Below, piece after piece: positions 1 through 6,214 of a stretch of DNA of 6,214 nt (the first letter of the stretch is position 1; every line of letters begins with the position of its first letter). This DNA is from Pseudomonadota bacterium. Lineage in GTDB: Bacteria; Bdellovibrionota_B; Oligoflexia; Silvanigrellales; Silvanigrellaceae. The position numbers were made by a program, and so were the translations under genes. The stretch lies in NCBI GenBank assembly GCA_027490595.1, contig JAIXXU010000193.1:1-6214 (forward strand), in the 5' to 3' direction. Below the pieces are notes generated by a model, which saw nothing but the letters and a program-made list of their open reading frames with translations, had not been told where the DNA came from and made no database searches.

Positions 1-51
1 AGCTTCTGCAAATCTAATACCCTGTCCTGCCATTGGTATTAAAATATTCAT
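1..51 (-). CDS. Second nucleotidyltransferase, N-terminal fragment (cut by window edge)
   Basis: Only the first 17 codons lie in the window; they read MNILIPMAGQGIRFAEA. This is the typical start of a sugar-phosphate nucleotidyltransferase: a beta strand followed by the glycine-rich nucleotide-binding loop P-M-A-G-x-G-x-R-F. The ATG (positions 51-49) overlaps the TGA of the preceding nucleotidyltransferase gene as ATGA, so it is the next gene of the same leftward operon. Nine of the 17 residues match the preceding enzyme when that one is read from its internal Met6, suggesting two related NTP-transferases in tandem. It is too short for the open reading frame to be called by length alone. The family is inferred from the loop; the substrate is unknown, and the rest of the gene lies left of position 1. 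Confidence 0.72.
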   Translation of the reverse strand, partial: MNILIPMAGQGIRFAEA

Positions 52-830
52 AAAAAATTTCCCACTAGTTTTGTCCAATACAGAAAATCATTGAGGTCTT
101 GAGGAGTGCCCCATTGACAAAAATGAGAGATATTAGGAGGGCAGTAAACTTTAAGCCCTTCTAAAACCATGTGTTTGTAAACCATACTTACATAATATTC
201 CCCATTGAGAGAATCTTTTTGGCTCATCAGTTTGTTAGCAAAATCCTTGAAAAGGCGACCCGATCGAAAATAATAGACTCCAGGAGAATGCAGTGATTTA
301 GTTTTGTCCAGTGTAAAAGAATATTTCTCTCGAATTTCAGTTAAAAAATTTTCAGAATCGACATTACAACAGGCGTATAAATTTTTTATTGGAATTAAAT
401 GTGGATGAAAACCACTATAGCAAGGCACAGCGCCATCTATATCTAAACTAAAAATCTGTTCTTTAAATTTTAAATAATCCCAGTGCATGTAATAATCACA
501 ATAACTTATTATAGTTGGCAAACTATCCTCAATAAATTCCCTTGCCTTCAATAAGGCATCTACAGGACCAAGTTTTGCCCCCTCAATGCTAATAATTTTT
601 CCATTTGGTTTGAGTGCTCTTAAAGTTTCACCCATGGAAGTATTCTCAATATGATCTTTCCTACAAATAAAAATAGGGTCAAACTCACCTGGAAACATTT
701 TTAAAACCCATTCAATCATTGGCTTTCCAAGAACTTCAATCATCGGCTTTGGTTTGTCGTAGCCAGCTCTCAAAAAACGAGAACCAAGGCCCGACATGGG
801 AATGACCAGTTGCATACTACGCTGCGTCAT
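48..830 (-). CDS. BcbE-like sugar-phosphate nucleotidyltransferase
   Basis: Encodes 260 residues, probably a cytosolic enzyme that transfers a nucleotide from an NTP to a phosphorylated sugar or polyol, giving an activated precursor for a surface glycan. The N-terminus carries the signature loop PMSGLGSRF (residues 11-19) followed by DKPKPMIEVLGKPMI (25-39), with Lys26 and Lys28 in the usual substrate-contacting place. KLGPVDALL (86-94) and YCDYYMHWD (110-118, Asp112 as probable metal ligand) follow. The overall pattern fits the capsule-associated BcbE-like branch of the GT-A-fold NTP transferases, and the length is normal for a stand-alone catalytic domain. The chosen ATG overlaps the aldolase stop as ATGA and has an AAGGTGG ribosome-binding site seven bases upstream (838-844 on the complement). 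Met6 is an alternative start that aligns better with the next gene. Which NTP and which sugar are used cannot be read from sequence. Confidence 0.87.
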   Translation of the reverse strand: MTQRSMQLVIPMSGLGSRFLRAGYDKPKPMIEVLGKPMIEWVLKMFPGEFDPIFICRKDHIENTSMGETLRALKPNGKIISIEGAKLGPVDALLKAREFIEDSLPTIISYCDYYMHWDYLKFKEQIFSLDIDGAVPCYSGFHPHLIPIKNLYACCNVDSENFLTEIREKYSFTLDKTKSLHSPGVYYFRSGRLFKDFANKLMSQKDSLNGEYYVSMVYKHMVLEGLKVYCPPNISHFCQWGTPQDLNDFLYWTKLVGNFL

Positions 831-1699
831 TTAGAGGCCACCTTCTGTCTGTATTTTTCAGACTCCATGCTTATAATATGATGTACGTCATTGTTTGAAA
901 GAAATTTAGGATTCAAGCCATGCTTCTTCATTTGATTCATTAAAAAATTAAATACTAGAATAGTTTCTTTTCCTGCTTTTGTGTTTCTAAGGTCTTCATT
1001 TTGAAGGTACACAATTTGATCTGGGAATAATATGTTAGAAAAGCATTCATTTAAATTACTATTTTCTAAGTATAAGTGTTCATCTAACTTGAATTTAACT
1101 TTTATTCTCTTTGAAACATATTCATGAAGCTCAAAACTTTCTAATGCAGAATCCGAGCCCACTATAACACCATGGTTTTCCATAAAAATAACAGATGAAC
1201 CTTGAAAATATTTTGCTATGGCTAAAGTTACAGGCAAACCTGGTGGAGCATATGGAATCCAAGCAGCCTCAGGAAATAATTCACGAACAATAGATAAACC
1301 TTCCAATGAACAAGTTAAAATATTTGCAAAAATAGAATGACTGTGAAGAATGCATTTAAATGGTAAAAAAGCGTGAAAACCAGTTTCAATTGATGGTCTA
1401 CTGTTTTTTGCATCATCTTCAGTATTAACTGAAGATTTAATCAAGCCTGTATAGTCATCCTCAGTCAAACACTTCAAAAGATTATTTCTGACTTGATGGT
1501 AATTAACAGATACAAATCCTTGTGATTCAGTAGCTTGGGATAACTCGATTCCTGATGCCTTTACGAGCATAAGATTACTATCAACCTTATAAGAAGTATT
1601 CCCGCCCCCTCCCTGAACATAAATTACTTGTTTCCCTAGTTCTCTCGAAATATTTATAAAAGAATCAATTTCAGAATTTACTTGAAGACAATGTTTCAT
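827..1699 (-). CDS. Class II aldolase/adducin-family protein
   Basis: A 290-residue, probably cytosolic, metal-dependent enzyme of the class II aldolase/adducin family, which includes fuculose- and rhamnulose-1-phosphate aldolases and ribulose-5-phosphate 4-epimerase. Visible motifs are the phosphate-binding glycine-rich segment QGGGGNTSYK (29-38), KASG (47-50), PSIET (102-106) with Glu105 in the usual acid position, HSH (119-121) and ENHG (174-177). His119, His121 and His176 match the expected zinc ligands, so the protein looks catalytically competent. The segment around PYAPPGLP (149-156) resembles the rhamnulose-phosphate aldolase-like subgroup. The frame can be extended to a TTG at 1717, but the ATG at 1699 is preferred because the family fold starts right after it; neither has a clear ribosome-binding site. 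It overlaps the upstream fusion gene by 29 bp, so translation may be coupled. In this setting it may make or rearrange a short phosphorylated sugar for nucleotide activation (inference). Aldol cleavage, condensation and epimerisation are all possible. Confidence 0.85.
   Translation of the reverse strand: MKHCLQVNSEIDSFINISRELGKQVIYVQGGGGNTSYKVDSNLMLVKASGIELSQATESQGFVSVNYHQVRNNLLKCLTEDDYTGLIKSSVNTEDDAKNSRPSIETGFHAFLPFKCILHSHSIFANILTCSLEGLSIVRELFPEAAWIPYAPPGLPVTLAIAKYFQGSSVIFMENHGVIVGSDSALESFELHEYVSKRIKVKFKLDEHLYLENSNLNECFSNILFPDQIVYLQNEDLRNTKAGKETILVFNFLMNQMKKHGLNPKFLSNNDVHHIISMESEKYRQKVASK
838..844 (-). promoter_or_regulatory. Shine-Dalgarno site of the nucleotidyltransferase gene
   Basis: Read on the minus strand this is AAGGTGG, one mismatch from AAGGAGG, seven bases before the ATG at 830-828. 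It lies inside the last codons of the aldolase gene and supports the upstream ATG over the internal Met6. It also shows that at least some genes here use Shine-Dalgarno initiation. Confidence 0.55.
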
Positions 1700-3785
1700 G
1701 ACAAACACAATACACAATTAAAAGTTGTAAGATGCCATCCCATCCCTCAAGCCATACCGGAGAGTATAGTCCAAGGTCTTGAACAGAAGTTAAATGTTTT
1801 TCACCAACTTGCTCTAGCACATAAACTGGAAGCGTGTCACGAAATTTAATGACCTGCCAGTCTTCTTTGTCATAATAATGCTCAATTTTATCTTTCAAAT
1901 GGTCACACAGATCTTCAAGAAGAGGGTCCAAAAAAAATGTGTTCAAAATTCTAAGCTCAAGCACTATATTAAAATCAAGCTCAGTGCGATTGTAATCTAT
2001 AGACGGATCAGAAGAAAAGGAGACTACTATATCTGCATGTTCTTCTTGCACTGTAATATATTTACGAGAATCATCCTGACGCCTTAAAATGCTCTCTAAC
2101 ACTTTTTCCTTAGAATAACCTCTGCACTTCATATCTCTTGTAATTTTCCAATATATAAGCAAGTTATCTTCAGGTCTTACAAAAATTTTTAAATCCATTA
2201 ACTCTCTAGCAGGTTTAAGATAAAAACTATGAAGACCCTCAAAAATCATGATTGGCTTAGGCTTTATTGGTACTTCATGTGTGAAGCGGCCTGTATCATG
2301 ATCGTAATGTCTTCTAAATATAACTTTATTATCACGAAGCATGGAAATATATTTCAAATCTCTATGGAGCTCATTAGCTCTAGGATCTAGATGTGTGAGC
2401 TCTAGCCACTTGCTATCACCTCTTTGCCACTTGTGCATATCATCTCCACAAATTAGAGCTGAAAATCTCTGAGAAAAGAAGTATTGTAATGCGCGGGCCA
2501 ACGTTGTTTTTCCGCTACCTGAATTACCGCTTATACCAATAATATAAGCTCTTGCGGTAACTTTACTTTTTTGCAGGGAAGTGACACCTCTGTAATATAT
2601 CCAAAGACAGTTTATAATTAAAAAAACCTGAAGCAAAGTATAGGAAAAATTCAATATTAAAGCAGAACTATAGCCACTCAAAGATAAAAAATTATATATA
2701 TTAAAATTATTTGCATCTTTGCTAAAAAAGCTAGACAAAATCGAAATGTAATCTGAATGTTGATGAAACCCAAAGTAAACGAAATAAGAAATCTGAAGAA
2801 GGAAAAATAGAGGAAGCTGACGAACAGGAGATTTAATATAAAAATAAGCAAAAAATGGGATAACCCAAAAGTACCATCCTTGCATGGGCACTACAAAAAA
2901 CAATAAAAATCCAAAGCTTGTTCCCAGAAACATAATAAAAAGATCTCTATTCAGAACCCGCATGAGCAAAGATCTAAAAATCAACACTAAATAAGCACCA
3001 ACAATTACATAAAACTGAGGAATATTTTGATTACCATATGATAATTTTGCAAAACTTAGTCTATGAAGTTCTGGGTTTAAAAAGACCATATTAATAAAAT
3101 GTGCTTTGAAAATAAATGGGAGGTTGCTTATAACAAAGGATAAACTTGTAAGACACGAAAATTTAATAGGATCTATAATATTAAAATTGTATCGCCAAAG
3201 AAAAATAACAAAAAAAGGCAGAGCTATAAACAAATGTAGTTTTGCAGACAAAGCTAAACCAAACACAATAGCAGCCAAAGTAAGCTTATCTTTAAACAAA
3301 CAATATAAGGCAACGAAGAGAAAAGCCGATGGAACTATATCTAATTGTCCATGAAGATAAGTGACATAAAACAAAACTGGAGAACACCAGTACAAGTATA
3401 AAACTTTCTTATTTTTTTTAGGAAACCAAGACAGAAAAATCAATAATATTAAAAAGTCACACATCAGCAAAGGTAATCTGTACGCAAAAAACAAAAAATG
3501 CAAATTAGAAACACTGAGGCCACAATAAAAGAAAATGAATCTGAAAAAACTCATTACATAGAGCATTAAGGCAGGATATGGGAAAATACTATTTTGATCA
3601 ATTTTATAGAAAAAATCATAAGGATCGGCAATAGGATGGTGCGCGAAATACTCTAAAAATGGGATAAACATGTCAGATAAATACTTAGAAGCAAACAAAG
3701 TTCCTGCAATAACTTTAAGGACTAGTGTTAGCCAAAATACAGGTTCTTTTTTTAAACTTTTAAATAAAACTAACATCTCAGACAT
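1671..3785 (-). CDS. GT-C-like membrane protein fused to phosphoribulokinase/uridine kinase-type domain
   Basis: A 704-residue two-part protein. Residues 1-400 are very hydrophobic, with roughly 11-12 possible membrane segments (for example 15-35, 65-90, 100-120, 147-163, 168-197, 208-226, 256-274, 281-317, 322-340, 372-398). The loop with DPYDFFY (54-60) and FPYPALMLY (68-76), then HGQLDIVP (145-152), resembles GT-C mannosyltransferases related to Gpi18 or GT87, which normally use lipid-linked sugars. Residues 413-704 form a P-loop kinase: Walker A GISGNSGSGKT (417-427), GDDMHKW (447-453) with a likely catalytic Asp, LDPRANELH (466-474), IMIFEGLHS (512-520) and a lid-like region RRQDDSRKYI (568-577). 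The LDPRAN and EGLH pattern favours a phosphoribulokinase-like enzyme over a classical uridine kinase. A C-terminal extension of about 110 residues follows. The frame is continuous, so the fusion looks real. The ATG at 3785 lacks a clear ribosome-binding site; Met4 is an alternative. The kinase substrate is unknown, perhaps a sugar or polyol later activated by the downstream nucleotidyltransferase. Confidence 0.83.
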   Translation of the reverse strand: MSEMLVLFKSLKKEPVFWLTLVLKVIAGTLFASKYLSDMFIPFLEYFAHHPIADPYDFFYKIDQNSIFPYPALMLYVMSFFRFIFFYCGLSVSNLHFLFFAYRLPLLMCDFLILLIFLSWFPKKNKKVLYLYWCSPVLFYVTYLHGQLDIVPSAFLFVALYCLFKDKLTLAAIVFGLALSAKLHLFIALPFFVIFLWRYNFNIIDPIKFSCLTSLSFVISNLPFIFKAHFINMVFLNPELHRLSFAKLSYGNQNIPQFYVIVGAYLVLIFRSLLMRVLNRDLFIMFLGTSFGFLLFFVVPMQGWYFWVIPFFAYFYIKSPVRQLPLFFLLQISYFVYFGFHQHSDYISILSSFFSKDANNFNIYNFLSLSGYSSALILNFSYTLLQVFLIINCLWIYYRGVTSLQKSKVTARAYIIGISGNSGSGKTTLARALQYFFSQRFSALICGDDMHKWQRGDSKWLELTHLDPRANELHRDLKYISMLRDNKVIFRRHYDHDTGRFTHEVPIKPKPIMIFEGLHSFYLKPARELMDLKIFVRPEDNLLIYWKITRDMKCRGYSKEKVLESILRRQDDSRKYITVQEEHADIVVSFSSDPSIDYNRTELDFNIVLELRILNTFFLDPLLEDLCDHLKDKIEHYYDKEDWQVIKFRDTLPVYVLEQVGEKHLTSVQDLGLYSPVWLEGWDGILQLLIVYCVCHETLSSSKF

Positions 3786-3938: not shown

Positions 3939-4598
3939 ATGAAAGAAACATTATTCACTCAAATATCTCTTGTCAAGATTAAAGGAATTCTTTTAGATCT
4001 CGATGATACCCTCTATTGTTACCAAAGAGCTCACGATCAAGCTTTGGAAGCTATTTTTGAACACATCATAGTACAAGGCATATATACCAACCTTAGTGAA
4101 TTTAAATTTGCATATAAAGCATTTCGACAAGATATTGTGACGAGATTAAGTCCCCAAGGTTGCTGCCGCTCAAGATTACTAGCATTTCAAAAGATGTGTG
4201 AAGAAAAAAAAATTAAAAATCCATATATTTTTGCGGAGCTATTAGATAGGATATATTGGAAAGAATTTCTTTATACAATAAAAATTAACCCCGAAGCTCT
4301 GGAGTTTTTAAAACAATGCAAATTTAAAAATATTCCAATTTGCATTGTTACTGATATGACTTCAAGTATACAAATTCAAAAAATTGAAGTTCTAAAAATA
4401 ACCGAATATATAGATCACCTTGTAACATCTGAAGAAATAGGAGAAGAAAAACCAAGCTCAAAAATGTTTTTATCAGGTTTAAAGAAACTTGGTTTAAAAC
4501 CAGAAGAAGTTATTATGATTGGTGACGACTTTAACAAAGATATTATAGGCTCTTCAAAAATAGGCATCAAAGGCTATTTGGTTAAGTCTATTGAGTAG
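3939..4598 (+). CDS. HAD-superfamily hydrolase (probable sugar-phosphate phosphatase)
   Basis: A 219-residue soluble haloacid dehalogenase-type hydrolase, most likely removing phosphate from a small metabolite. All four HAD motifs are present: DLDDTL (20-25) with nucleophile Asp20 and acid/base Asp22; Thr138 in IVTDM (136-140); Lys171 in EEKP (169-172); and GDDFNKD (195-201) with the metal-binding acidic residues. A helical cap of the C1 type lies between motifs I and II (about 30-115), as in YjjG-like or phosphoglycolate phosphatase-like enzymes. The ATG is supported by AAAGGAA just upstream. It is transcribed away from the kinase-aldolase-nucleotidyltransferase operon but shares the intergenic region, so it may serve the same pathway (inference). 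Its stop lies only about seven bases before an insertion-sequence remnant, so its last residues may have been altered by the insertion, although the length is normal. The substrate is not readable. Confidence 0.85.
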   Translation: MKETLFTQISLVKIKGILLDLDDTLYCYQRAHDQALEAIFEHIIVQGIYTNLSEFKFAYKAFRQDIVTRLSPQGCCRSRLLAFQKMCEEKKIKNPYIFAELLDRIYWKEFLYTIKINPEALEFLKQCKFKNIPICIVTDMTSSIQIQKIEVLKITEYIDHLVTSEEIGEEKPSSKMFLSGLKKLGLKPEEVIMIGDDFNKDIIGSSKIGIKGYLVKSIE

Positions 4599-4605
4599 AG
4601 TATGT

Positions 4606-4969
4606 GAGGTCTGTGTTACAAGTTCATCTTTTCAACCCCTGAATATTGTCAAATGTCTGGATTTCATGTTTAGGAGGCTTTCAGAATTCCGTCGACAAAT
4701 TCTACTTTATCTGCGACATCAACTTGTTCTTCTGCATCATTTTGTGCATTTTGATCAAGTTTAAAACCATAACTAGGCAAGTTTTTGGGTCAGCTAACTC
4801 TTTTGTTTTTCGATGCCCCTAGTATTACGGTAGCCAATAGATTCAATTGAATTAGAGGTATAAATATGTATCCAATGATACGCAGGGAAATCATAAAAAG
4901 TTATGCTTCCGACCTTTTACTTTTAATTGCTTTCTCGTAAAAGCGTGTCTTTTTTTACTGCTTGTCTAG
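4606..4969 (-). mobile_element. Remnant of an IS256-family insertion sequence (3' part)
   Basis: This gene-free gap between the HAD gene and the glycosyltransferase is explained by a decayed insertion sequence lying on the minus strand. It includes the C-terminal part of a Mutator/IS256-type transposase and then about 65 bp of non-coding end sequence. That end contains GAATATTGTCAAATGTC (4641-4657), resembling the motif usually found downstream of IS256-family transposases, and the probable outer terminus GAGGTCTGTGTTACAAG (from 4606). The other end is missing: no matching inverted copy is seen near 4970-4992, so the 5' two-thirds of the element has been lost. The exact boundaries, particularly the right one, are estimates by eye. 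Confidence 0.65.
4670..4969 (-). pseudogene. IS256-family transposase, C-terminal remnant with frameshifts
   Basis: Read leftward, transposase-like protein segments appear in successive frames. First comes a segment with FYEKAIKS; then a second frame with ITFYDFPAYHWIHI and TSNSIES; then GYRNTRGIEKQKS before a stop; then a segment with KTCLVMVL; and finally, in another frame, a tail with GFKLDQNAQ and VEFVDGILKAS ending at TAA (4672-4670). The Y-D-F-P-A-x-H-W and T-x-N-x-I-E-S patterns are characteristic of IS256-family (Mutator-type DDE) transposases; the Glu of I-E-S is probably the third catalytic residue. At least two frameshifts, in-frame stops and loss of roughly the first two-thirds, including both catalytic Asp regions, make it non-functional. 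Recognition is by motif memory, not a database search. Confidence 0.72.
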
Positions 4970-4992
4970 TATTAGGGGGATTTTTTTAATTT

Positions 4993-6214
4993 TCACAGTG
5001 GGCTAATTGCTTCAAAGAATTTTTCCCAACAATCAAGTATGGTCTTTGAACTAAACTTCTCTTGTATTTTAAGCCAGTCATGATTAAAACGTTGCTCTAA
5101 ATTCGTATCATTTTCGTTAGATAAAACACTTTTTATCTTGTTAGCGATATCTTCTTCATCATAAGGATCGCAGTAAAGGGCTGCGTTTTCAAGAAGAAAT
5201 CTGTTTGAAGGATTATCTGACACAACAGCCGGACAACCACAGCTTAAAGCTTCAAGTGGGGCAGAACATAGAGTCTCAGAAAATGATGGTGCAACATAAC
5301 AAGATGCCGCAGAGTAGAGAAGCGCAATATCGGAGTTTCCTACATTTTCTAGATAAATTAAATCTTTTGATATTATGTAGGGTTTTATGCACTTTAGAGC
5401 ACTATCGCAAAGCTGCTGTTGTTCTATTTCCTTGTGTGTCTTGTCCTCTTTAATCTGATTAATTTTATTACCAAATATTAACAGCTTAACATCACTTTTT
5501 GTTTCTAATCTTAAGCGAGACCATGCGTCAACAAGCGTGTTTATATTTTTTTTACTCTCTAAGTTTGAAAAACAGACAATAAATTTAGGAATTTGAATTT
5601 TCTCGGAAAACCAGCAAGAAATAAAGTCATTTGTCTTTAATCGAAGGCCCCCATACTTGGAAAATATGCTTAATGAAATAGACTTTGTTATGACATTTTT
5701 TAATAGCTCGACTGTTGGTTTAATCCTTGCAATACTAGGAATAACGTTAGGAATAATAAAAACTCTTGTTGAAATACTAGGGTCTAGCTTTATAAGATCA
5801 TTTGCAACAACAGGAGAGGGGCATACAAAAAAGGAGTCTTTTGAACAGTTTTTAAAAGATTTTAAAAACATTTTAGCAGCTTTGGGGTCATCAAGTAAAT
5901 CAGGATGTTTTAGTAATGACAAATCATCTAGCTTAATTATTTTTTTTGTGTTTGTGGATAATTTTGCGCCCGTTAGGCAGTCAAATATTACAAAATTATG
6001 AGTGTTTGTGTCTAAAGAAAGACGATAATTTCCTCGCATAGTAGCATTTTGAAAAGATTTTAAGCCTGCAGACGATAAAAAGAAATTACACCTAAATATA
6101 TTCTCTCTATGTTTAACTGACAAAAGTGAGTGAAAAAATTTTCTCCATATGATATCTTTTCCAAACTCGTCTTGCATTTTTTGGACTATAAATCGTTTTT
6201 TTGAAAAAAATTTA
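4993..6214 (-). CDS. GT4-family glycosyltransferase, 5' end outside the window
   Basis: A GT-B-fold glycosyltransferase of the GT4 (glycosyl transferases group 1) type, probably a cytosolic or membrane-associated enzyme moving a sugar from a nucleotide donor onto a growing glycan. Counting from the ATG at 6177, the C-terminal donor-binding domain is clear: FSNLESKKNINTLVDAW (203-219), LLIFGNK (232-238), SETLCSAPLEALSCGCP (300-316) and ENAALYCDP (330-338). Glu301 and Glu309 form the E-x7-E motif of retaining GT4 enzymes. The acceptor-side domain is less conserved, with FVCPSPVV (117-124) and IIPNVIP (141-147) in the expected order. The frame stays open for 12 codons upstream of that ATG to the window edge and the ATG has no ribosome-binding site, so the gene probably begins outside the window and is listed as partial. 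It reads toward the insertion remnant, ending 23 bp from it. Sugar specificity is unknown. Confidence 0.85.
   Translation of the reverse strand, partial: KFFSKKRFIVQKMQDEFGKDIIWRKFFHSLLSVKHRENIFRCNFFLSSAGLKSFQNATMRGNYRLSLDTNTHNFVIFDCLTGAKLSTNTKKIIKLDDLSLLKHPDLLDDPKAAKMFLKSFKNCSKDSFFVCPSPVVANDLIKLDPSISTRVFIIPNVIPSIARIKPTVELLKNVITKSISLSIFSKYGGLRLKTNDFISCWFSEKIQIPKFIVCFSNLESKKNINTLVDAWSRLRLETKSDVKLLIFGNKINQIKEDKTHKEIEQQQLCDSALKCIKPYIISKDLIYLENVGNSDIALLYSAASCYVAPSFSETLCSAPLEALSCGCPAVVSDNPSNRFLLENAALYCDPYDEEDIANKIKSVLSNENDTNLEQRFNHDWLKIQEKFSSKTILDCWEKFFEAISPL

What the first reader, a model, noticed from the sequence alone, without database searches (positions are those of the whole stretch)
1671..3785. 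Membrane GT-C-like domain fused to a phosphoribulokinase-like kinase
One uninterrupted frame joins about 400 residues of multi-pass membrane protein with HGQLDIVP and DPYDFFY motifs to a P-loop kinase with Walker A at 417-427, LDPRAN at 466-471 and EGLH at 516-519. GT-C enzymes normally use lipid-linked donors and kinases of this family act on soluble pentose phosphates or nucleosides, so a physical link is unexpected. It could place synthesis of a phosphorylated precursor at the membrane, or the kinase could act on a lipid-linked or glycan-bound substrate. The motifs are seen; the coupling is inference.
Basis: partly seen in the sequence, partly recalled or inferred. Interest (0 to 1): 0.72.

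Follow-up and report, generated by a model that had tools for sequence, protein, structure and literature searches.

The report
Glycan-decorating cassette with fused sugar kinase
A bacterial membrane protein with the predicted fold of sugar-transferring enzymes is fused to a phosphoribulokinase-like kinase inside a set of genes that recurs across bacteria and, in part, in viral sequences; the set is predicted to build an unusual sugar from a five-carbon sugar phosphate and attach it to surface glycans.

Summary
It is no assembly error: a capped search scored 154 proteins, and the 120 listed align over 84-100% of it. The fusion sits in a recurring gene set: HAD phosphatase, class II aldolase, two nucleotidyltransferases, a polyprenyl-phosphate-type GT2, a small glycerophosphodiesterase-like (GDPD-like) protein and, in half of the loci, GtrA. 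Eleven PRK residues are all kept in 94 of 106 chosen homologues; 5 of 6 fusion genomes searched gave no RuBisCO hit. Viral contigs carry a related kinase fused to the aldolase instead, beside the same nucleotidyltransferase and a mini-GDPD, which suggests a soluble sugar-activation pathway that does not need the membrane half. Most likely the cassette makes an activated pentulose-derived sugar and adds it to a surface glycan, a new variant of three-component glycosylation. The sugar, the aldolase step and GT-C catalysis (the usual loop-1 acid is not conserved) remain open. A lipid-linked kinase substrate is not supported.

The parts
1671..3785 (-). GT-C / PRK fusion gene, 704 aa (kinase cytosolic by charge pattern, inferred)
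2571..3785 (-). membrane half with predicted GT-C fold, residues 1-405
1674..2555 (-). PRK-family kinase half, residues 411-704, including the C-terminal PRK subdomain
2505..2537 (-). P-loop (Walker A), residues 417-427
   Evidence: K426 kept in 104 of 106
827..1717 (-). class II aldolase (FucA-like), overlapping the end of the fusion gene; start codon uncertain
   Evidence: PF00596 E 1.5e-19; invariant H125, H127, H182 and E111 in 14 rows
48..830 (-). nucleotidyltransferase 1 (NTP1), overlapping the aldolase gene by 4 bases
   Evidence: PF12804 E 3.1e-6, PF00483 E 9.5e-5; cassette HMM 438 bits, the HMM containing this sequence
1..51 (-). first 17 codons of nucleotidyltransferase 2 (NTP2), cut by the contig end
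   Evidence: MNILIPMAGQGIRFAEA, like the NTP2 N-termini in A2
3939..4598 (+). HAD phosphatase, closest NCBIfam model ribulose-1,5-bisphosphate 5-phosphatase; divergent from the fusion
   Evidence: NF053830 E 1.4e-42, 145.9 bits against a cut-off of 330; conserved Asp/Lys/Asp positions
4993..6213 (-). GT4 glycosyltransferase, neighbour, not a conserved member of the cassette; open at the contig end
   Evidence: PF00534 E 5.9e-26; only two counterparts of about 20 bits in the other 18 loci

Best explanation
The 704-residue protein is a conserved fusion of a membrane domain with a predicted GT-C fold and a PRK-family kinase domain, and with its neighbours it likely forms a glycan-decorating cassette that would activate a pentulose-phosphate-derived sugar in the cytoplasm, load it on a polyprenyl-phosphate carrier, flip it and add it to a surface glycan. 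Shown: the fusion, the intact PRK residues and the recurring gene set; the folds are high-confidence models. Inferred steps: (1) the kinase half phosphorylates C1 of ribulose-5-phosphate or a near isomer; (2) the HAD enzyme removes the 5-phosphate, leaving a ketose-1-phosphate, as in the relay that makes ADP- and GDP-heptose (recalled); (3) the class II aldolase remodels that ketose-1-phosphate by aldol chemistry; (4) the two nucleotidyltransferases, helped by the GDPD-like protein, make a nucleotide-activated sugar; (5) GT2 transfers the sugar to undecaprenyl phosphate; (6) GtrA flips it; (7) the GT-C half transfers it to the glycan. The fusion would tie the first enzyme of the route to the last, probably to match precursor supply to transfer at the membrane.
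For: Recurring gene set: in 18 named-genome loci fetched by the fusion, HAD 15, aldolase 15, NTP1 15, NTP2 14, GT2 14, GDPD-like 12, GtrA 10; in 3 plasmid loci (E. coli, Hirschia, Azospirillum; fusion 25-28% identical to the window's) all seven partners in 3 of 3; in 7 loci of the window's own phylum NTP1 6, NTP2 6, GT2 6, GDPD-like 7, HAD 5, aldolase 4, GtrA 1. Co-occurrence in genome samples: 397 genomes of Martelella's order, fusion in 4, GDPD-like in 9 (5 above 200 bits), both in 4; 58 genomes of the own phylum, 8 and 8, both in 7. Leaving out the two centre genomes: 3 of 3 against 1 of 393 (5 of 393 with the weak hits), Fisher p 4e-7 (5e-6), and 7 of 7 against 1 of 50, p 3e-8 (with centres). 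Kinase: 11 PRK residues all intact in 94 of 106 chosen homologues; H451, R455, H496 and K547 are shared with the 7 standalone PRK-type proteins in A12 and with none of its 12 uridine-kinase-type rows P0166-P0181. HAD: best NCBIfam model is RuBP 5-phosphatase; the aldolase keeps FucA-type residues. GT-C fold is closest to enzymes that use polyprenyl-phosphate sugars. Domain joins link the steps: GtrA-GTC-PRK (P0025; P0032 by domain list), GTC-PRK-aldolase (P0057), PRK-aldolase (P0147, P0149, P0152). Viral contigs: aldolase in 59 of 65 loci, NTP1 in 58, mini-GDPD in 58, mini-HAD in 42; five of the loci end inside the kinase ORF. Variant cassettes have ribulose-phosphate 3-epimerase domains at the front. 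RuBisCO family hit in 1 of 6 fusion genomes searched; the hit in the window's own genome lies between mtnA- and mtnB-like genes.
Confidence: 0.58

Rival explanations
1. The cassette makes a phosphate-linked substituent (polyol, ketose or C2/C3 unit joined by a phosphodiester) rather than a glycosidically linked sugar; nucleotidyltransferases make a CDP-type alcohol and the GDPD-like protein acts on the phosphodiester.
For: GDPD-like protein in 12 of 18, 3 of 3 and 7 of 7 loci, with GDPD fold by model (3ks6 E 2.2e-7) and GDPD-type His-Arg, Glu-x-Asp and His-Asp motifs (motif meaning recalled); a PF03009 GDPD stands beside the fusion in L016 and L017; ketose-1-phosphates are non-anomeric phosphates; loop-1 acid missing in GT-C.
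Against: GT2 resembles dolichyl/undecaprenyl-phosphate sugar synthases and GtrA family proteins serve Und-P-sugars (recalled); the GT-C half resembles glycosyltransferases.
Confidence: 0.15
2. The kinase half is mainly structural or regulatory and the GT-C half is the only working part, or the reverse (the GT-C half only anchors the kinase).
For: P0211 and P0213 keep the domain without kinase residues; no conserved acid in GT-C loop 1; PIG-U similarity.
Against: 94 of 106 kinases have all 11 tested residues; D110, D149, K182, W304, W307 of GT-C are invariant in the 106.
Confidence: 0.1
3. One reading: the kinase phosphorylates a lipid-linked or glycan-bound sugar at the membrane.
For: Physical link to a GT-C half of a kind that uses lipid-linked substrates.
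Against: Related kinases in viral contigs lack the membrane half and share an ORF with an aldolase in 50 of 65 loci; PRK phosphosugar-binding residues kept; GT-C catalysis would be extracytoplasmic, ATP is not.
Confidence: 0.07
4. A metabolic module: kinase, HAD and aldolase break ribulose-5-phosphate down to DHAP and glycolaldehyde as in the haloarchaeal RuBP pathway, or feed RuBisCO; the glycan genes are incidental.
For: RuBP phosphatase and ribulose-1-phosphate aldolase are successive enzymes in halophilic archaea (PMC9700705, abstract and passages seen) and HAD's best model is that phosphatase. Brucella pecoris has two RuBisCO-family hits that I did not classify.
Against: Nucleotidyltransferases, GT2 and GDPD-like travel with the fusion; kinase physically fused to GT-C; no RuBisCO hit in 5 of 6 fusion genomes, some of them possibly incomplete; the hit in the window's genome sits with mtnA- and mtnB-like genes.
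Confidence: 0.08

Closest known systems
Three-component pentofuranose addition systems of Citrobacter youngae O1/O2 (Kelly et al. 2024, PMC11127046; abstract, first part of the Discussion and search passages seen)
   Same: A lipid (undecaprenyl) phosphate pentose donor is made in the cytoplasm, flipped and used by a GT-C outside to decorate a glycan; a HAD-family phosphatase and a sugar-editing enzyme take part.
   Different: There the donor comes from PRPP by a polyprenyl phosphoribose synthase and a MATE flippase; here a PRK-type kinase, HAD, aldolase, two nucleotidyltransferases, a GT2 and GtrA are found, and the kinase is fused to the GT-C. The words ribulose, xylulose, ketose and phosphoribulokinase do not occur in the main text held.
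GtrA/GtrB/GtrC-type periplasmic glucosylation (recalled; mentioned in PMC11127046 as the earlier prototype)
   Same: GtrA family flippase, GT2 making Und-P-sugar, GT-C transferase.
   Different: Gtr systems use a common UDP-sugar (recalled); this cassette brings its own sugar-phosphate kinase, phosphatase, aldolase and nucleotidyltransferases.
Phosphoribulokinase (archaeal and cyanobacteria-specific forms, PDB 5b3f, 9qkp)
   Same: Fold over the whole kinase half, P-loop, ribulose-5-phosphate-binding residues.
   Different: Fused to a membrane domain or an aldolase; a separate group in the tree, with moderate support (96/67); RuBisCO hit in only 1 of 6 fusion genomes searched; subfamily residues W453 and R491.
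Non-carboxylating pentose bisphosphate pathway of halophilic archaea (PMC9700705; abstract and passages seen)
   Same: RuBP 5-phosphatase-like HAD and FucA-like aldolase in one operon.
   Different: Catabolic; the abstract and passages name a ribose-1-phosphate kinase and an isomerase upstream, no PRK, and no nucleotidyltransferase or membrane partner.
ADP/GDP-heptose relay (HldE/HddA kinase, GmhB HAD phosphatase, nucleotidyltransferase; recalled)
   Same: Kinase, HAD phosphatase, nucleotidyltransferase in series on a sugar phosphate.
   Different: Different kinase family, ketose rather than aldose phosphate, extra aldolase and GDPD-like protein.

Membership tests
Phosphoribulokinase (EC 2.7.1.19) | PF00485 domain above gathering score and P-loop | tested here: met
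   133.3 bits against 22; K426 in 104 of 106
Phosphoribulokinase (EC 2.7.1.19) | Residues that bind ribulose-5-phosphate and ATP (His, Arg, Tyr, His, Lys, Arg named in PMC5241800, passages seen) | tested here: met
   H451, R455, Y494, H496, K547, R550 each kept in 104 of 106; H451, R455, H496 and K547 absent from the 12 uridine-kinase-type rows of A12. The mapping is by alignment motifs, not by superposed coordinates
Phosphoribulokinase (EC 2.7.1.19) | Curated cut-off of the nearest NCBIfam PRK model NF005655 | tested here: not met
   191.7 bits against 236; so not filed as a bona fide PRK
Phosphoribulokinase (EC 2.7.1.19) | Ribulose-5-phosphate kinase activity | not testable with these tools
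   needs protein
GT-C glycosyltransferase | GT-C fold | tested here: met
GT-C glycosyltransferase | Conserved acidic residue in extracytoplasmic loop 1 (recalled as typical) | tested here: not met
   position 54 Asp in 17, Asn in 80 of 106; no loop-1 column reaches 70% Asp/Glu
Three-component pentofuranose system (Kelly 2024) | Polyprenyl phosphoribose synthase and MATE flippase | tested here: not met
   the recurring neighbours are GT2 and GtrA instead; no dedicated search for these two families was made in every locus; not filed as a member, only as working like one
GtrA/GtrB/GT-C system | GtrA plus Und-P-sugar-type GT2 plus GT-C | tested here: inconclusive
   GT2 in 23 of 28 loci, GtrA in 14 of 28; neither on the window's own contig
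RuBP 5-phosphatase (NF053830) | Curated cut-off 330 bits | tested here: not met
   145.9 bits, E 1.4e-42
Class II aldolase (PF00596) | Domain above cut-off, metal histidines and acid kept | tested here: met
   71 bits against 22.2; invariant H125, H127, H182, E111 in 14 rows; the catalytic roles of these positions in FucA are recalled
Ribulose-1-phosphate aldolase (NF053831) | Curated cut-off 300 bits | tested here: not met
   12.8 bits
Glycerophosphodiester phosphodiesterase (small GDPD-like protein) | PF03009 domain, GDPD fold, His-Arg / Glu-x-Asp / His-Asp motifs | tested here: inconclusive
   no PF03009 hit in the seven family members scanned but GDPDs are the top Foldseek matches (3ks6 E 2.2e-7) and the motifs are invariant in 12 rows; record annotation names three of them PI-PLC/GDPD family

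The most novel reading that the evidence does not exclude
A phosphate walk that makes a nucleotide-activated ketofuranose, the first known to me: the PRK-type kinase puts a phosphate on C1 of a pentulose, HAD strips C5, NTP1 activates the C1 phosphate, the neighbouring anomeric C2 hydroxyl closes a 1,2-cyclic phosphate, the GDPD-like protein opens it to the 2-phosphate, and NTP2 activates that as an NDP-2-pentulose. GT2, GtrA and the GT-C then deliver ribulose or xylulose to glycans. This would explain why two nucleotidyltransferases and a phosphodiesterase-like protein tend to travel with a pentulose-type kinase, and how the rare D-xylulose found in some bacterial polysaccharides (PMC8707391, passages seen) is made.
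Probability: 0.1. Interest if true: 0.88.

Novelty: new variant of a known kind. Interest (0 to 1): 0.66.

Why it matters
If true, it places a Calvin-cycle-type kinase in surface glycan assembly, outside carbon fixation, and explains a group of proteins that sources name uridine kinase or phosphoribulokinase. It gives a concrete candidate route to glycan pentuloses or other pentose-phosphate-derived sugars. The kinase, aldolase, nucleotidyltransferase and GDPD-like set in viral contigs suggests that viruses carry the soluble half of the pathway. The cassette is also on plasmids, including one in E. coli that is found in 2 of 5426 complete genomes.

Tried and rejected
Assembly or sequencing error as cause of the fusion: rejected. 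Uridine kinase, as many sources name the homologues: rejected on residues and tree. Calvin cycle supply: there is a RuBisCO family hit in the window's genome, but its neighbours read as mtnA and mtnB (by eye from the translations), so methionine salvage; 5 of 6 fusion genomes searched gave no hit, Brucella pecoris gave two that I did not classify. Aldolase as an AraD-type epimerase: the invariant Glu111 sits in the motif position where FucA has Glu and AraD Asp (motifs recalled), so aldolase is favoured but not proven. E. coli O95, whose O-polysaccharide contains xylulose (PMC8707391): a distant-DNA search of 5426 E. coli genomes with the plasmid NTP1-NTP2/GtrA/GT2/GDPD-like stretch found only the two plasmids; I do not know whether an O95 genome is among them, and protein-level relatives are not excluded. 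Named phages in INPHARED: only weak, partial kinase matches. P0155 in viral contigs: none. Rfam (gathering threshold) and tRNA: nothing in the window. Membrane topology: charge bias fits a cytosolic kinase from residue 88 on, but helix 72-87 does not fit a simple count, so the number of crossings is left open. Literature: ten searches were answered; eight of them asked about the cassette or its sugars and none listed a paper that describes it, judged from titles and abstracts; the library lacks most subscription journals. Passages of PMC9978339 on PRK catalysis were seen too. The origin of the fusion could not be dated: the tree needs 3 changes for the fused state (2-3 in bootstraps, at least 1 forced).

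Choices before counts: A7 holds 106 rows that I chose from the 213 proteins found (short, near-identical and extra-domain ones left out); the tree holds 54 rows of my choice; the cassette profiles were built from 11-14 rows each, mostly from the loci later scored, so only the own-phylum loci and genome samples are free of that circle; thresholds and the 200-bit line in the order sample were set after seeing scores; the fusion search of the order sample scored only 2 candidates per genome.
Full report

Not an artefact. A full-length search, capped at 7997 scored candidates, found 154 proteins including the window's own, and the 120 listed align over 84-100% of the query. Eighteen loci came from named genome records, titled Acetobacter, Martelella, Aureimonas, Brucella pecoris, SAR86, Bacteroidota and a spirochaete symbiont, among others. 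Of 58 genomes of the window's phylum 8 have the full fusion, the window's included; of 397 genomes of Martelella's order 4 have it, Martelella included. One homologue is labelled Nanoarchaeota (P0200). Further joins exist: GtrA-GTC-PRK (P0025; P0032 by domain list), GTC-PRK-aldolase (P0057) and PRK-aldolase without GT-C (P0147, P0149, P0152).

The gene set. Window neighbours are a class II aldolase and a nucleotidyltransferase (NTP1) on the same strand with overlapping gene ends, the first 17 codons of a second nucleotidyltransferase (NTP2) cut by the contig end, and a divergent HAD phosphatase. In the 18 named-genome loci the counts are HAD 15, aldolase 15, NTP1 15, NTP2 14, GT2 14, GDPD-like 12, GtrA 10; three plasmid loci have all seven; seven loci of the own phylum have HAD 5, aldolase 4, NTP1 6, NTP2 6, GT2 6, GDPD-like 7, GtrA 1 (thresholds set there; several loci are short, and the profiles were built partly from these same loci). 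In L016 and L017 a PF03009 GDPD stands beside the fusion, and L020 has a relative of it. L012 and L019 have only GtrA, fusion and aldolase; L017 has no aldolase. Gene order changes while content stays: in the E. coli, Hirschia and Azospirillum plasmids NTP1 and NTP2 are one gene. In the genome samples the GDPD-like protein tracks the fusion. With the centre genomes left out it is in 3 of 3 fusion genomes against 1 of 393 others in the order (5 of 393 if weak hits count), and in 7 of 7 against 1 of 50 in the phylum. In the window's own incomplete genome it was not found.

What each part would do. Kinase: all 11 catalytic or substrate residues tested are intact in 94 of 106 chosen homologues, including the equivalents of the ribulose-5-phosphate-binding His, Arg, Tyr, His and Lys and the ATP-binding Arg named for PRK in PMC5241800 (passages seen). 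The 7 standalone PRK-type proteins in A12 share H451, R455, H496 and K547, and the 12 uridine-kinase-type rows have none of the four; W453 and R491 of the fusions differ from both. In a 54-row tree the fusion, PRK-aldolase and related kinases group together (96/67, not a starred branch) apart from standalone PRKs (100/98) and uridine kinases (100/100). HAD: nearest NCBIfam model is the haloarchaeal RuBP 5-phosphatase (E 1.4e-42, below cut-off), an enzyme reported to turn RuBP into ribulose-1-phosphate (PMC9700705, passages seen). Aldolase: FucA-like, with metal histidines and Glu111 invariant in 14 rows; its profile matches fuculose-phosphate aldolases among others. NTP1 and NTP2 resemble sugar nucleotidyltransferases. 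GT2 resembles polyprenyl-phosphate sugar synthases. GtrA is of the flippase family. The small protein has a GDPD fold by model and GDPD-type motifs.

Viral and variant cassettes. Scans of viral contigs returned 65 loci with 55 distinct kinase ORFs (L091 and L099 lie on one contig, and five loci end inside the kinase ORF). Kinase and aldolase are in one ORF in 50 of 65, an aldolase is in 59 loci, NTP1 in 58, a GDPD-like protein of about 155 residues in 58, a HAD-like protein of about 100 residues in 42. Strict motif patterns were met in part: P-loop 56, YxHxTG 52, DDxHKWxR 33, WKIxRD 26 of 65. A helicase cluster occurs in 13 loci, and the member next to the set in L118 is DnaB-like by PHROGs. 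One contig in the viral collection (L095) carries the complete bacterial-type cassette. Three bacterial variants keep NTP1, NTP2, GT2 and GDPD-like but lack the fusion: L058 has a ribulose-phosphate 3-epimerase, a xylose-isomerase-like barrel and two zinc dehydrogenases; L059 has a 1303-residue protein with PRK-like (weak, E 0.0005, below cut-off), class II fructose-bisphosphate-aldolase-like and ribulose-phosphate-epimerase domains; L085 shows no front end. So pentulose-phosphate chemistry recurs at the front of the same activation module in two of these three.

Mechanism. The simplest reading is a relay: kinase, HAD and aldolase prepare a ketose-1-phosphate from ribulose-5-phosphate, the nucleotidyltransferases and GDPD-like protein activate it, GT2 puts it on undecaprenyl phosphate, GtrA flips it, and the GT-C half adds it to a glycan. 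All of this is inference from sequence, model and neighbourhood. Two points do not yet fit: the aldolase is not needed to make ribulose-1-phosphate from ribulose-5-phosphate, and a ketose-1-phosphate nucleotide is not a glycosyl donor. The bold reading in the section on the most novel reading would resolve the second point. In the GT-C half no acidic residue of loop 1 is conserved (position 54: Asn 80, Asp 17, Ser 8 of 106) while D110, D149, K182, W304 and W307 are invariant, so its catalysis, if any, is unusual.

Relation to known systems. It works like the three-component pentofuranose systems of Kelly et al. (PMC11127046; abstract, first part of Discussion and passages seen) and the older Gtr systems, but the recurring neighbours are not the polyprenyl phosphoribose synthase and MATE flippase of the former, and it brings its own sugar-phosphate enzymes. 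D-xylulose is a rare but real glycan sugar, reported in Devosia submarina, E. coli O95, Yersinia enterocolitica and Campylobacter jejuni RM1221 (PMC8707391, passages seen); I could not test whether those strains carry the module. None of the eight paper searches aimed at the cassette or its sugars listed a description of it.

Noticed in passing
L089-L153 (viral contigs): Viral contigs carry a related kinase, mostly fused to a class II aldolase, with NTP1, a mini-HAD and a mini-GDPD; 43 of 65 loci also hold an NAD-dependent epimerase/dehydratase-like gene cluster (by eye). The use that viruses make of the product is unknown.
   Followed up: partly
L058 about 9-18 kb, L059, L085: Variant cassettes keep NTP1, NTP2, GT2 and GDPD-like but replace kinase/HAD/aldolase by ribulose-phosphate 3-epimerase plus dehydrogenases, by a 1303-aa multidomain protein, or by nothing visible.
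   Followed up: partly
P0211, P0213: Fusion homologues whose kinase half has lost the P-loop and nearly all catalytic residues while the domain is kept: natural pseudokinases.
   Followed up: partly
window 4600-4992, minus strand: Stretch with stops in all three minus-strand frames; one frame reads HIYTSNSIESIGYRNTRGIEKQKS, which looks like the end of a decayed IS256-type transposase (recalled motif).
   Followed up: partly
L040 6022-14984 (NZ_CP145712.1): Whole cassette on an IncR E. coli plasmid with an IS26 element 1.6 kb downstream; found in 2 of 5426 complete E. coli genomes, at 100% identity.
   Followed up: partly
L050: The RuBisCO-family protein of the window's genome sits between mtnA-like and mtnB-like genes (by eye), so methionine salvage rather than carbon fixation.
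   Followed up: partly
L012 6890-7689, L019 13728-14975: Next to a reduced cassette (GtrA, fusion, aldolase) lies a gene that looks like a dehydroquinate-synthase-type sugar phosphate cyclase (by eye, not searched).
   Followed up: no
P0155, P0156, L134 7353-8786: Kinase of this kind with a different N-terminal domain of about 200 residues of unknown nature.
   Followed up: no
29 of 397 genomes: Proteins matching the kinase half but not the GT-C half in Martelella's order (mostly open frames of 300-360 aa, for example L081); L081 groups with standalone PRKs in the tree.
   Followed up: partly
window 4993-6213, minus strand: GT4 glycosyltransferase reaching the contig end; may belong to the host glycan locus.
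   Followed up: no
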